In this document: positions 1 through 58,800 of the stretch, piece by piece
How the letters are laid out: every line of letters starts with the position of its first letter
Position numbering within the stretch: the stretch's first letter is position 1
NCBI RefSeq assembly: GCF_036417845.1
Contig: NC_089979.1
Coordinates: 48,244,775-48,308,774, forward strand
Length of the DNA stretch: 64,000 nt
Source: Apteryx mantelli
Taxonomy: Eukaryota; Chordata; Aves; Apterygiformes; Apterygidae
Direction of reading: 5' to 3'
Position numbers and translations under genes: made by a program
Notes under the pieces: model-generated
Told to the model about the DNA's origin: nothing
Database searches by the model: none
What the model saw: only the letters and a program-made list of their open reading frames with translations

Positions 1-392
1 AATACGGGAGGGACGGAGGAGTCAAAGTGCGTTCGCCGCTGTGCTCAGCAGTGGGCCCCTCGGTCCTGCAGCGGAGGCATTACCCCCTCCCGGCATCCTC
101 GGGATGCACGAGCCGCCCCGCAACGGGCGAGAAAAGGATGGAGAGCGCGTCTGCTGTACCGCTGGGCCGGCGAGGAGAACGCGCTTTCCGCCCCCCCCCG
201 AAAGCGTCCGCAGCCGCTGCGCTCTTGCAGGGCACCCGCAGCACCTACGAGCGCTGCGCTGCCCTGCGGGCGCCTGAGCCCACCACGGCGCTGGGCATCT
301 CCCAAGGCTGACTGCAAACGCGGAAAAAAGAGTGCTCAGCACCGCTGGGATTACTCAGCACCTCGCAGGACGGGGCGCCGCGCTCCTGCTGG
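1..392 (+). other. possible non-coding first exon (partial)
   Basis: A good splice donor, CTGG|GTAAGC, lies inside the CpG island with the cut after position 392. No comparably strong donor is seen on the minus strand of the island. If used, the exon would run from an unseen or nearby start to 392, and the gene would extend to the right with a very long first intron. No convincing coding frame joins to it, so it would be 5' UTR. This rests on one splice motif and its CpG setting only. Confidence 0.25.
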
Positions 393-560
393 GTAAGCAG
401 CTTCGCAGCGCGCCTCCGCGCCGCGCCGCCGCTTGGCATGGGCGCTTCGCTGCCTTGCGCCAGGCTGGGGCTGCTGCAGGCAGTCGCGCTCCTGCCCGCT
501 GCCGCCCAGCCTCTGCGGCCGAGCGCAGCACGCCCGGCAGGGAGCCAGCGAGGCGAGGGA
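1..560. promoter_or_regulatory. CpG island, probable promoter region
   Basis: The first 560 bases are strongly GC-rich and dense in CpG, unlike the AT-rich DNA that follows from about position 600. Undepleted CpG of this length in a vertebrate genome usually marks an unmethylated promoter with or without a first exon. I see no convincing TATA box. Several open frames of 64 to 108 codons cross the island on both strands, but they overlap each other, resemble nothing I know, and are expected by chance where stop codons are rare. The island is cut by the left edge of the window, so its true size is unknown. Which gene it serves cannot be told from here. Confidence 0.7.
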
Positions 561-2118
561 GACTGCGACAGGCACTGCTAAATGCACCGCATCTGGGTTT
601 TCCCTCCTCCGGGAAACTGGACGATGTGACATTTGCTTTTTGGGCTAGCTCAGAATAAAGACAGGCATTTTCAGACTTGTCGCTGAAGCAAATGTTCCAA
701 AAGATGCCGGTTTAAAACATTTTTCTGTTTAGATTTTTCAGCTGTTTGGTGTGGAGTTCTACTTCATTTTGTGGATTTTCTAATTTCTTCTTTTTGTATT
801 TTTGTTAACATTTCATACCATGTTTATATTATCATTATTGCAGTAAAACACAAAATAATCCTAACTGCTAATGCAATAGTCAGGGGTTGAAGTGGAACAG
901 TATTCTGGCATTTCAGAGTTAGGTCTGTACTTTCTGTGCAGGGGAAATACATATAATGGCAAACAAGACTTCAAAATCAGTAGTTTTCAAACTCTTTTCT
1001 ACAGACCTTTGGAAGGTCAGGTCAGTAGACAATTTTTGGAGTATCCTTGAAAGAAGACTGATAAAAACAATTTTATTTACATTATCCAGAAATCACTGTA
1101 TGTGAAAGCTATATATGTACATATTCTTTTACAGACCAAAGTATTTCAGGTTTTTGTTTCAATTCTTTTTATTACAACAGAATAGAGATTAATTTGATCT
1201 ACAAAAGATGAAAAAATGTTTCAAACAATAATAATAGTCCAAGGAAAAATGTAAACAAAAACCCCAGCCATTATACCATGTCTCTCTGTGACATAGTGCA
1301 TTATGAAGAAGGATAAATCATTATCATTAAGGATAAATAAGAATGGTAGTTCAACATGAAAACTTGTCACATGCAATTTGAAATGGGATTTCAAAACAAA
1401 TTTTCAAACCTTCCAAAATATAATTTGCACATCAATATTTAAAAAAAATATTTTAGTCTAAGCAAAAGTGACCATAAAGATTGCAGTAGTTTGATCTAGT
1501 TTGAAGAAGAAATCTTAAACCACTGACCTTTGGGAACATTATGGTTAATTTGGCAGAATAAATGGCATTCACTTAGCTGTCATTTTGTGCTCTGGGAGTT
1601 TTTCGTTTCTTCTTTCCATTTGACATGAATTTTTTTTTTTTTTTTTTGTCTTAACCCTTTTAGCATCTTACAGGATGGCAGAGGAAAGGACCTTGGATAA
1701 TTGTGTAACCTGAGCTGTATAATTTGAAATATAATTGGCATATGATGCAGTAAATTAAAAATTCACTTTTCTCTTCATGGTAAGATTTTCAAACCGATTT
1801 TGGTGTCTAAAAATTCATCCAGTCACTTACAGATATTGCAAAGCCAGTTAAAAGTCCAGTTCCTATTCATTTCCATTTGAGGGAGGAAACTAATCTGTCT
1901 GAGTGCTTTAGAAAATCCCCAACAAGGATCCTTTGGCCATTGTGTTGGTCTCAGTACTTTTAAAAGACTGTTCCTGAGCCATTTTTGAAAATCATCCTTA
2001 AGCTCTTAAATCACTAAGATTGCATCATTAGCACCAAGCCTGCAACAGAATTCAAACCTGCTTCACGTATATTTGATAAGGATATGATTTGATGTGGTCT
2101 ACTCTCATGTATACACAC
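561..2118. other. non-coding stretch, no gene seen
   Basis: Composition falls quickly from GC-rich to AT-rich after 600. The stretch contains a poly-T run at 1630-1647 and no recognisable exon or repeat family. If the donor at 392 is real, this is the start of the first intron. Confidence 0.5.
1630..1647. repeat. poly-T run (18)
   Basis: Uninterrupted T tract. No retroposon body is recognisable beside it. Confidence 0.9.
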
Positions 2119-55400: not shown

Positions 55401-55797
55401 AAGATCTATGACTCACTTGTGTCTATGCCCCTTTTTAATATATCTTATAAAAAATTCTTTAGTGAGCTGGAGCTGAACTGTTCTAGACAGCTTATATTAG
55501 CATGACTCATTATTATCTAAACATTCAAAGGTAGAACTGGATCTATGTTGTCTGGTTTCAGCACAGTCAAACTCAACTTGCAAACATATGTTTGCCTGGA
55601 GATGTATATAACTTAAAAACAAACCTGAATATGCTATGCCAAAAGTAGTATTAGCTGGTCAATCCTGAATTTCAAATCCTATCTTATAATAGGAAATAAG
55701 AAAGAATTAAATGTTCTATTAAATTTAAACTCTAAATTTATTTCAAAAATATTTGTTCTGATTATCAGAGTCCTGCTTTGCCCCTGCATAATTAATA
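52401..55797. other. non-coding stretch, no gene recognised
   Basis: The longest non-transposon open frame of the window, 128 codons on the plus strand at 53451-53837, lies here in a GC-richer patch. It has several cysteines but no recognisable domain and could be a decayed repeat. The rest is AT-rich. Confidence 0.4.
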
Positions 55798-55810
55798 CAG
55801 GCATACCTCG
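55798..55810 (+). repeat. Tigger left terminal inverted repeat
   Basis: CAGGCATACCTCG, preceded by the TA target duplication. It is the transposase-binding end downstream of the gene. Confidence 0.95.
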
Positions 55811-55999
55811 GAGATATTGTGGGTCTGGTTCCAGACCACCACAATAAAGTGAATATCGCAATAAAGCGAGTCACACAAATTTTTTGGTTTCCCAGTGCAT
55901 CTAAAAGTTATGTTTACACTATACAGTAGTCTATTAAGTGTGCAATAGCATGATGTCTAAAAAACAATGTACATACCTTAATTAAAAAACACTTTATTG

Positions 56000-57789
56000 C
56001 TAAAAAACGCTAACCGTCATCTGAGCTTCAGTGAATTGTAATCTTTTTGCTGATGGAGGGTCTTGCCTCGATGTTGATGGCTGCTGACTGATCAGGGTGG
56101 TGGCTGCTGAAGGTTGGGGTGGCTGTGGCAATTGCTTCAAATAAGACAGCAGTGAAGTCTGCCGCATCGATTGACTCTTCCTTTCACAAAGGATTTCTCT
56201 GTAGCATGTGATGCTGTGTGATAGCATTTTACCCACAACAGAACTTCTGCCAAAATTGGAGTCAATCCTCTCAAACCCTGCCGCTGCTTTATCAACTAAG
56301 TTTATGCAATATTCTAAATCCTGTGTTGTCATTTCAACAGTGTTCACAGCATCTTCACCAGGAGTAGATTCCATCTCAAGAAACCACTTTCTTTGCTCAT
56401 CCATAAGAAGCAACTCCTTATCCGTTCAAGTTTTATCATGAGATTGCAGCAATTCAGTCACATCTTCAGGCTCCACTTCTCATTCTAGTTCTCTTGCTGC
56501 TTCCGCCACATCTGCACTTACTTCCTCCACTGAAGTCTTGAACCCCTCCAAGTCATCCATGAGGGCTGGAATCAACTTCTTCCAAACTCCCGTGAATGTT
56601 GATATTTTGACCTCCTCCCATGAATCACCGATGTTCTTAATGGCATCTAGAATGGTGAATCCTTTCCAGAAGGTTTTCAATTGACTTTGCCCAGATCCAT
56701 CAGAGGAATTGCTATCTATGGCAGCTGTAGCCTTACGAAATGTGTTTCTTAAATAATAAGACTTGAAGGTCGAAATGACTCCTTGATCCATGGGCTGCAG
56801 AATGGATGTTGTGTTAGCAGGCGTGGAAACAACATCAGTCTTGTTGTACATCTCCATTAGAGCTCTTGGGTGACCAGGTGCATTGTCAATGAGCAGTAAT
56901 ATTTTGAAAGGCATCTTTTTTTCTGAGCAGTAGGTCTCAACAGTGGGCTTAAAATATTCAGGAAACCATGTTGTAAACAGATGTGCTGTCATCCAGGCTT
57001 TGTTGTTCCATTTATAGAGCACAGGCAGAGCAAATTTAGCATAACTCTTAAGGGCCGTAGGATTTTCGGAATGGTAAATGAGCATTGGCTTCAACTTCAA
57101 GTCCCCAGCTGCATTAGCCCCTAACAAGAGAGTCAGCCTGTCCTTTGAAGCTTTGAAGCCAGGCGTTGACTTCTCCTCTTTAGCTACAAAGGTCCTAGAT
57201 GGCATCTTCTTCCAATAGAAGGCTGCTTCGTCTGCACTGAAAATCTGTTGTTGAGTGTAGCCACCTTCATCAATTCTCTTAGCTAGATCTTCTGGATAAC
57301 TTGCTGCAGCTTCTACATCAGCACTTGCTGCTTCACCTTGCACTTTTATGTTATGGAGATGGCTTCTTTCCTTGAACCTCATGAACCAACCTCTGCTAGC
57401 TTCAAACTTTTCTTCTGCAGCTTCCTCACTTCTCTCAGCCTTCCTAGAATTGGAGGGAGTCAGGGCCTTGCTCTGGATGAGGCTTTGGCTTAAGGGAATG
57501 TTGTGGCTGATTTGATCATCTGTCCAGACCACTAAAACTTTCTCCCTATCAGCAATAAGGCTGTTGCGCTTTCTTATCATTTGTGTGTTCACTGGAGTAG
57601 CACTTTGAATGTCCTTCGAGACCTTTTCCTTTGGATTCACAACTTGGCTAGCTGTTTGGCACAAGAGGCCCAGCGTTCGCCTATCTTGGCTTTCGACATG
57701 CCTTCCTCACTAAGCTTCATCGTTTCTAGCTCTTGATTTAAAGTGAGAGACATGCGACTCTTCCTTTCACTTGAACACTTAGAGGCCAT
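56000..57789 (-). pseudogene. Tigger1-type transposase (broken)
   Basis: The gene starts at ATG 57787-57789 (protein MASKCSSERKS…) and spans about 1.79 kb, matching the roughly 590 residues of human TIGD1. The order is an N-terminal psq/CENP-B-type helix-turn-helix, a second CENP-B DNA-binding segment ([14 protein letters not shown], encoded near 57370-57390), then a DDE_1 catalytic domain. The catalytic aspartates are present in ADEAAFYW (57230-57232), LLIDNAPGH (56885-56887) and QPMDQGV (56786-56788), a DD32D spacing. An acidic and glutamine/proline-rich C-terminus follows. Lesions: an apparent 1-bp deletion near 57680 shifts the frame after residue 35 or so; TGA at 56480-56482; TGA at 56426-56428, which may also occur in other family copies; and an apparent 1-bp loss near 56023 at the very end. 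The 394-codon central block is intact. The enzyme would bind the inverted repeats and catalyse excision and insertion at TA in the nucleus, but this copy should be inactive. Confidence 0.9.
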
Positions 57790-58202
57790 TGTGGGCTTAT
57801 CAATTGCCCTAATTTCAATGTTGTTGTGTCTCAGGGAATAGGGAGGCGCAAGGAGAGGGAGAGAGATGGGGGAACGGCTGGTCGGTGGAGTCGTCAGAAC
57901 ACACACAACATTTATCGATTAAGTTTGACATCTTATATGGGTGCAGTTTGTGGTGCGCAAAACAATTACAATAGTAACATCAAAGATCACTGATCACAGA
58001 TCACCATAACAGATATAATAATAATGAAAAAGTTTGCAATATTGCGAGAATTACCAAAATGTGACACAGAGACATGAAGTGAGTACATGCTGTTGGAAAA
58101 ATGACACTGATTGATAAAATTGCTCGACGCAGGGTTGCCACAAACCTTCAATTTGTAAAAAATGCAATATCTGTGAAGCACAATAAAGCGAGCACAATAA
58201 AA

Positions 58203-58215
58203 CGAGGTATGCCTG
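58203..58215 (-). repeat. Tigger right terminal inverted repeat
   Basis: CGAGGTATGCCTG, the exact reverse complement of the left end, followed by TA. The adjoining CAATAAAGCGAGCACAATAAAA contains subterminal copies of an ACAATAAA motif that also occurs inside the left end. Confidence 0.95.
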
Positions 58216-58586
58216 TACTTTATGTAGTCCTGTTCCTCCCACACCTCAAAAGGGATGTAGTAGAGGTGAAACAGATCCAGAGAAGAGCAATAAAGATGAT
58301 CAAAGGTATGGAACAGCTTCCAGGGGAGGAACAATTACATGGGCTAGGAATCTTCAGCTTGGAAAACAGACAATTGAGGGGATATATGATAAAGTCAAAA
58401 AAAATGGGGAGTGGCATGGGAAGGGTGAATAGGCATAGGTTGTTCATCCTTTCATTCAGTACAAGAAGTAGTGACATCAGAGGAATTTGCAGGTGGTTGG
58501 TTCAAAACAAACAAAATGAGGTGCTTCTTCATGCAACATGTATTAAGGTTAAGAACCACTTGCCAAAGGTGGCAAACCTTTTGTGA
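58216..58586 (+). pseudogene. CR1 ORF2 (reverse transcriptase protein) C-terminal remnant
   Basis: An open frame running out of the Tigger end encodes the C-terminal tail of CR1 ORF2 downstream of the reverse transcriptase domain. The stretch QIQRRAIKMIKGMEQLP and then GLGIFSLENRQLRGYMI is the family's typical 'Q.RATKMI.GLE.LPYEERL..LGLFSLEKRRLRGDLI' segment. It is followed by RLFILSFSTRSSDIRG and ending PKVANLL. The catalytic domain and endonuclease are absent, so this is a dead 5'-truncated copy. Confidence 0.8.
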
Positions 58587-58800
58587 AAGCTAAAGGTTTA
58601 CACAGGTTGAAGGACAAACTGGAGAAGTTCATGGAAGAAAAATCCACAAGGTCACAGAATACACAGAGCTTACGGAGTCCCTAAGTTGCAAATAATCAGT
58701 CTTATAATACTTGGGAGAAGTATCACTACATGTTTGCCCTGTTTTTATAATTTTTCATAGGTATCCATTTTTGTCCACTGTCTTGGTCTGGTCCAGCACA
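58216..58800 (+). mobile_element. CR1 LINE, 5'-truncated, ORF2 end and 3' UTR
   Basis: Sense-strand CR1 landmarks appear in order: ATCCAGAGAAGAGCAATAAA, GGTATGGAACAGCTTCCAGG, TTCAGCTTGGAAAACAGAC, AACAAACAAAATGAGGTGC, then 3' UTR pieces (ATCACTACATG, TTGCCCTGTTTTTA, GTCCACTGTCTTGGTCTGG). The wording is that of turtle and crocodilian CR1. The visible left boundary coincides with the Tigger end, so either the Tigger landed in the CR1 or the upstream part is too decayed to see on the other side. The 3' end near 58800 is approximate. Confidence 0.85.

What the first reader, a model, noticed from the sequence alone, without database searches (positions are those of the whole stretch)
55798..58215. 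Near-complete Tigger1-type transposon in a sauropsid-looking genome: candidate horizontal transfer
Seen directly: a 2418-bp element with 13-bp inverted repeats, TA duplication and a transposase with all three DDE aspartates and few breaks. Known: Tigger1 was described from human and is associated with placental mammals. The flanking CR1 and the CR1 at 17.9 kb are of turtle/crocodile type. Inference: a copy this close to mammalian Tigger1 in a lineage split over 300 million years ago is hard to explain by descent, so lateral transfer, a shared donor, or an under-described sauropsid Tigger1 radiation are the options. Assembly contamination is unlikely because CR1 is contiguous with it, but it is not excluded.
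Basis: partly seen in the sequence, partly recalled or inferred. Interest (0 to 1): 0.75.

Follow-up and report, generated by a model that had tools for sequence, protein, structure and literature searches.

The report
Mammal-type Tigger1 transposon in a bird
A dead jumping gene best known from mammals sits in hundreds of places in what is probably a kiwi genome, which points to an old transfer between distant animals, and neighbouring copies seem to have overwritten one another.

Summary
55798-58215 is a full-length, 2418-bp Tigger1-type (pogo group) DNA transposon with 13-bp inverted repeats, a TA duplication and a broken transposase.

It belongs to a large family. A 27-base mammalian Tigger1 end, recalled before I saw the window, matches 455 sites in this 1.5-Gb genome, against 0 for a reversed control. 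Thirty fetched copies lie at 30 different sites and have decayed independently by about 4%. That makes contamination very unlikely. Contig sizes look avian. A 2016 paper already reported Tigger1 in brown kiwi and left transfer versus contamination open. Kiwi is my best host guess; the opsin test did not complete. Near-identity to mammalian Tigger1 (98.9%) rests on a consensus recalled from memory, so horizontal transfer is likely but not proven here.

New: the window copy is identical over 2306 bp to an inverted copy 76 kb away, then differs in the last 112 bp, with unrelated flanks. Four pairs under 0.4 Mb average 0.9% divergence, against 8.6% between contigs. Ectopic gene conversion that fades with distance fits better than recent transposition. 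Only 30 of 40 scored copies could be compared.

The parts
55798..58215 (-). Full-length Tigger1-type DNA transposon, 2418 bp (strand given is that of the transposase)
55798..55810 (+). Terminal inverted repeat, 13 bp, perfect
58203..58215 (-). Terminal inverted repeat, 13 bp, perfect
55796..55797 (.). TA target-site duplication, left copy
58216..58217 (.). TA target-site duplication, right copy
57637..57918 (-). Transposase piece 1, CENP-B_N DNA-binding domain
   Evidence: E 1.1e-07
56480..57706 (-). Transposase piece 2, 408 aa, HTH_Tnp_Tc5 and DDE_1 with the three aspartates
   Evidence: E 9.5e-09 and 1.6e-49
56000..56425 (-). Transposase piece 3, C-terminal open frame of 141 aa, no Pfam match
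55798..58103 (.). Stretch of 2306 bp with zero differences from the inverted copy L010, 75.7 kb away: read as a gene-conversion tract
58104..58215 (.). Last 112 bp, 23 differing alignment columns against L010 (17 substitutions, 6 gap columns): read as the unconverted end

Best explanation
The element is one of several hundred full or partial copies of a Tigger1 family that entered the ancestor of this bird (probably kiwi) by horizontal transfer, from a mammal or from a third party that also supplied mammals. A DDE/D transposase cut and pasted it into TA sites in one burst, after which copies decayed without selection. Copies lying within about 1 Mb of each other have since exchanged sequence by ectopic gene conversion, and the window copy and its inverted neighbour 76 kb away did so very recently. 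Shown: anatomy, TA sites, dispersal, star-like near-neutral decay, and the distance-dependent identity. Inferred: the horizontal step and its direction, the host, and gene conversion as the process.
For: Anatomy and domains. A recalled mammalian Tigger1 end matches 243 + 212 sites, control 0 + 0. 25 of 30 copies have TA on both sides. Star-like tree; mean non-CpG K2P 0.041 to the majority; codon positions 1, 2, 3 and non-coding at 3.7, 3.9, 4.1, 4.2%. Recalled Tigger1 consensus 98.9% identical to the majority, in line with PMC4971623 (passages). Zero differences in 2306 bp with L010, then a divergent end. Divergence by distance: 0.9% in 4 pairs under 0.4 Mb, 5.6% in 6 pairs at 0.4-1.2 Mb, 8.5-9.1% in 60 pairs beyond, 8.6% in 365 pairs on different contigs; 0 of 10000 shuffles as low in each of the first two classes. 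No significant flank likeness in 4 of the 5 close pairs; a 16-bp match in the fifth.
Against: Near-identity to mammals was not measured against a database. The host was not identified. No related genome was searched, so absence in other palaeognaths or reptiles is untested, and PMC9219625 reports Tigger elements in 20 reptile species and 1 bird (passages), so a wider sauropsid presence is possible. Of 5 close pairs one (L034/L036) shows no excess of differences at its ends. Pairs share copies, so the 6 pairs at 0.4-1.2 Mb are not independent. Only 30 of 914 candidate places were compared, chosen by likeness to the window copy. Slightly lower divergence at codon position 1 than in non-coding DNA hints that decay was not entirely neutral.
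Confidence: 0.7

Rival explanations
1. Vertical descent: Tigger1 was in the amniote ancestor and survived in this lineage as an active element until its burst.
For: Tigger elements of several clusters occur in reptiles and one bird (PMC9219625, passages), and TIGD genes are old in vertebrates (PMC7325037, passages).
Against: About 99% identity of consensus sequences including non-coding parts (recalled consensus) cannot survive more than 300 million years of separate descent; copies here are only about 4% decayed.
Confidence: 0.07
2. Contamination of the assembly or sample with mammalian DNA.
For: PMC4971623 could not rule it out for the earlier kiwi draft (passages).
Against: 455 end matches across the genome; 40 scored copies on 11 contigs, most of them chromosome-sized; different sites and independent decay in 30 of 30 fetched copies.
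Confidence: 0.02
3. The close, nearly identical copies are recent local transpositions, not conversions.
For: Nearby copies are expected if transposition is local; the neighbourhoods at C1:107-111 Mb form a supported group in the tree.
Against: A moved copy carries both ends with it, yet L009/L010 are identical for 2306 bp and differ in the last 112 bp. Four of 5 close pairs have an excess of differences at the ends after correction for faster ends (p 5.5e-11, 2.3e-6, 3.6e-7, 6.5e-4; the fifth 0.35).
Confidence: 0.12
4. The identical tract is an assembly or polishing artefact.
For: Zero differences in 2306 bp is extreme, and I do not know how this assembly was made.
Against: Mis-polishing should borrow from any similar copy in the genome, not from chromosomal neighbours; the effect is graded over about 1 Mb.
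Confidence: 0.08

Closest known systems
Tigger1 (TIGGER1) of placental mammals, pogo group of Tc1/mariner
   Same: Length about 2.4 kb, ends, TA target, DD32D transposase of the same domain order; 98.9% to my recalled consensus.
   Different: Host has bird-like chromosomes; copies here are about 4% decayed against about 14-16% for TIGGER1 in bats (PMC4971623 table, passage).
Tigger1-like insertions in brown kiwi (PMC4971623, 2016)
   Same: Tigger1 near-identical to mammalian Tigger1 in a bird; very possibly the same family in the same or a sister species.
   Different: That report rests on BLAST hits in a draft and left contamination open; here chromosome-scale context, target sites, decay and conversion are described. 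Host identity not confirmed.
Ectopic (interlocus) gene conversion between dispersed repeats
   Same: Identity tracts bounded inside the homology, unrelated flanks, decline with distance (general knowledge, recalled).
   Different: Between 2.4-kb DNA transposon copies 52 to about 1000 kb apart. Two searches (20 of 279 papers listed; 3 of 3) listed no such case by title or abstract start; I opened none of those papers.

Membership tests
Tigger1 (pogo group) | TA target-site duplication | tested here: met
   Window copy TA/TA; 25 of 30 copies TA on both sides, the other 5 off on one side
Tigger1 (pogo group) | Short terminal inverted repeats with the Tigger1 end sequence | tested here: met
   13-bp perfect repeats; the end recalled from mammalian Tigger1 matches 455 sites with up to 3 mismatches; the reference end itself is recalled
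Tigger1 (pogo group) | Transposase with CENP-B_N, Tc5-type HTH and DDE_1 domains | tested here: met
Tigger1 (pogo group) | DD32D catalytic spacing (given for TIGD1 in PMC7325037, passage) | tested here: met
   Hand count on the translation
Tigger1 (pogo group) | High nucleotide identity to the Tigger1 consensus over its length | tested here: inconclusive
   98.9% over 2419 sites for the majority and 94.3% for the window copy, but against a consensus recalled from memory
Horizontal transfer | Patchy distribution: absent from intermediate lineages | not testable with these tools
   No other animal genome could be searched
Horizontal transfer | Element divergence well below host neutral divergence | tested here: inconclusive
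   Copies 4.1% from majority and majority 1.1% from the recalled mammalian consensus; no database or host-gene comparison
Host is kiwi (Apteryx) | Kiwi-specific OPN1MW Glu134Lys (PMC4511969, passages) | not tested
   Requests 63, 91, 108 did not complete
Ectopic gene conversion | Identity tract inside the element with unrelated flanks | tested here: met
   for the window pair
Ectopic gene conversion | Excess of differences at the element ends in close pairs | tested here: met
   4 of 5 close pairs, not in L034/L036

The most novel reading that the evidence does not exclude
Copies of a horizontally acquired Tigger1 in a ratite-like bird are in continuing concerted evolution. Any two copies within roughly 1 Mb convert each other by ectopic recombination over much of their length, often sparing only the terminal hundred or so bases, so the family is a natural assay of how gene conversion falls off with physical distance. 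The window pair was converted within about the last 1.6% of the family's age (95% bound).
Probability: 0.65. Interest if true: 0.6.

Novelty: new member of a known kind. Interest (0 to 1): 0.5.

Why it matters
If the host is kiwi, this largely removes the contamination doubt left in 2016 and makes a mammal-bird transfer of a DNA transposon directly testable. PMC7070016 (abstract and passages) counts only 24 transfers involving mammals and birds among at least 975, so each secure case counts. The conversion pattern also warns that identity between nearby transposon copies cannot be read as recent movement, and it offers a measure of conversion against distance in a vertebrate genome.

Tried and rejected
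Rejected: contamination. Rejected as less likely: recent transposition of the window copy. Rejected: segmental duplication for the 76-kb neighbour, because its flanks share nothing significant with the window's (best E 0.033; none at E 0.01 or below).

Led nowhere: six peptide patterns of the transposase found nothing in viral contigs, and an exact 22-base element end found nothing there, so no viral vector is indicated; these scans see close relatives only. No solved structure at E 0.01. No Rfam match at gathering scores in the window. A look for copies inserted inside a repeat shared with other flanks or with the window found none, but covered only the 15 of 30 copies with TA at the BLAST-called ends. 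Open frames in the window were listed and not searched for host genes. Tigger1 in kiwi: the search for kiwi and Tigger terms listed 11 papers; PMC4971623 and PMC5629816 hold all four terms, and the second was not opened. Other paper searches: 20 of 54 listed; 20 of 279 listed. The single bird named in the supplement of PMC9219625 could not be seen, and may be kiwi. Pace and Feschotte 2007 is not held.

Full report
What is there. The window holds a complete 2418-bp element at exactly the stated place, with 13-bp perfect terminal inverted repeats and TA on both sides. The transposase lies on the minus strand in three open pieces. Pfam finds CENP-B_N in the first, HTH_Tnp_Tc5 and DDE_1 in the second, and nothing in the third. 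The catalytic aspartates are present in the translation, and my hand count gives 32 residues between the second and third. PMC7325037 gives DD32D for TIGD1 (passage). No other Tigger1 piece lies in the window.

The genome. The window is G000:C2:48244775-48308774 of a 1.504-Gb assembly in 408 contigs. Of these, 12 lengths were seen: 222.9, 173.4, 141.1, 90.8, 88.5, 88.1, 43.9, 33.5, 30.2, 28.6, 20.1 and 4.3 Mb. That looks like a bird with macro- and microchromosomes (inference from general knowledge). PMC4511969 gives 1.595 Gb assembled and 1.65 Gb estimated for brown kiwi (passages). PMC4971623 reports more than twenty Tigger1_MNa-like insertions in brown kiwi, at least 97% similar over at least 92% of the element, and says that contamination of the kiwi genome could not be conclusively ruled out (passages). 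Kiwi is my best guess for the host, at about 0.8. The direct test, two opsin substitutions described as kiwi-specific in PMC4511969, could not be run because the genome machine gave no further answer.

The family. The whole element as query gave 42 rows, which I read as 40 copies on 11 contigs, 38 of them covering at least 2365 bp; 914 candidates were seen and only 40 scored, so the true number is larger. Thirty full copies were fetched, the window's own among them. All sit at different sites, 25 of 30 with TA on both sides and the other 5 off on one side (with BLAST-called ends the count was 15 of 30). Two fetched short copies, L001 and L002, are internally deleted and keep about 170 bp of one end and 140-160 bp of the other.

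Age and decay. Against the majority of the 30 copies, non-CpG K2P divergence averages 0.041 (range 0.029-0.053), and the window copy is at 0.043. The tree is star-like with short inner branches, apart from copies that are neighbours on one chromosome; the copies at C1:107-111 Mb also form a group. Divergence at codon positions 1, 2, 3 and outside the frame is 3.7, 3.9, 4.1 and 4.2% over 25 copies, after one of each of 5 close pairs was dropped. That is close to neutral decay after one burst; the small deficit at position 1 may mean a little selection during the burst. The majority has an open frame of 593 aa from its first Met, and 2 of 30 copies still have open frames above 600 aa. With assumed bird rates of 1-2e-9 per site per year (recalled, not calibrated), 4.1% is about 20-41 million years.

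Likeness to mammals. I could not reach Dfam, Repbase or any mammalian genome. A Tigger1 consensus recalled from memory is 98.9% identical to the 30-copy majority (27 differences in 2419 sites) and 94.3% to the window copy. The recall came after I had read the window, so it could have been coloured by it. As a check, the window copy differs from the majority, which was never printed, at 126 sites; the recall agrees with the majority at 117, with the window at 6 and with neither at 3. The recall therefore carries information of its own, but it is not a database result. It agrees with the published statements that kiwi insertions are at least 97% similar to bat Tigger1 and that the bat and human consensus sequences share almost 97.5% (PMC4971623, passages). 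One point fits less well: none of my 30 copies reaches 97% to its own majority (best 96.35%). My set was picked by likeness to the window copy out of 914 candidates, so better-preserved copies may exist.

Horizontal transfer. With near-identity in non-coding as well as coding DNA and a burst far younger than the bird-mammal split, transfer is the best explanation. The direction, donor and date are not shown. PMC9219625 finds Tigger elements in 20 reptile species and 1 bird and reports turtle-mammal and crocodile-mammal transfers (passages); which bird is in a supplement that I could not see. PMC7325037 lists a pogo transfer candidate between a manakin and a butterfly (passage). PMC7070016 counts 24 transfers involving mammals and birds among at least 975, and the words kiwi, Apteryx and Tigger do not occur in its main text. 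Viral contigs gave no relative.

A second, unexpected result. The best match of the window copy lies inverted 75.7 kb downstream (L010). The two are identical over 2306 bp, and then 23 alignment columns differ within the last 112 bp. Their flanks share nothing significant, so these are two separate insertions of which one seems to have overwritten the other. Among all 435 pairs of the 30 copies, the 4 pairs under 0.4 Mb average 0.9% divergence (0.7-1.2%), the 6 pairs at 0.4-1.2 Mb 5.6%, the 14 pairs at 1.2-4 Mb 8.5%, the 13 pairs at 4-30 Mb 9.0%, the 33 pairs beyond that 9.1%, and the 365 pairs on different contigs 8.6% with a minimum of 6.1%. Shuffling positions gave 0 of 10000 as low for each of the first two classes, and 4304, 8970 and 9887 of 10000 for the others. 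Pairs that share a copy are not independent, and L011/L013 (2.8%) pulls the second class down; 3 of its 6 pairs lie below the between-contig minimum. Residual differences in close pairs pile up at the element ends. Ends evolve faster in general (15.1% against 8.2% in 430 other pairs). After correction for that, 4 of 5 close pairs keep an excess (p 5.5e-11, 2.3e-6, 3.6e-7, 6.5e-4) and one, L034/L036, does not (p 0.35). Flank comparison found nothing at E 0.01 or below in 4 of these 5 pairs, and one 16-bp match in L011/L013. Transposition would carry both ends along, so gene conversion fits better. For the window pair, zero differences in 2306 bp bounds the event to the last 1.6% of the family's age at 95%. 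Three of the 4 closest pairs are inverted and one is direct.

Verdict. The proposed transfer is probably right, but not new as an observation and not proven here. What is added is strong evidence against contamination, the decay profile of the family, and a distance-limited conversion pattern that changes how the window copy should be read. That pattern rests on 30 copies; three further close pairs are known by position and would test it.

Noticed in passing
L015 with L017, L034 with L036, L019 with L020, L011 with L013 (genome places): Four further same-chromosome pairs of Tigger1 copies, 52 kb to 1.03 Mb apart, are only 0.7-2.8% diverged although other copies differ by about 8.6%.
   Followed up: partly
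L001 and L002, middle of each locus: Short, internally deleted Tigger1 copies with only the two ends left, MITE-like.
   Followed up: no
window 58218-58690: The 3' flank of the transposon looks like a CR1 retrotransposon fragment; recognised from recall only, not tested against a repeat library.
   Followed up: no
window 1-700: Several overlapping open frames of 90-131 aa on both strands crowd the first 700 bases, as in a G+C-rich stretch; not examined further.
   Followed up: no
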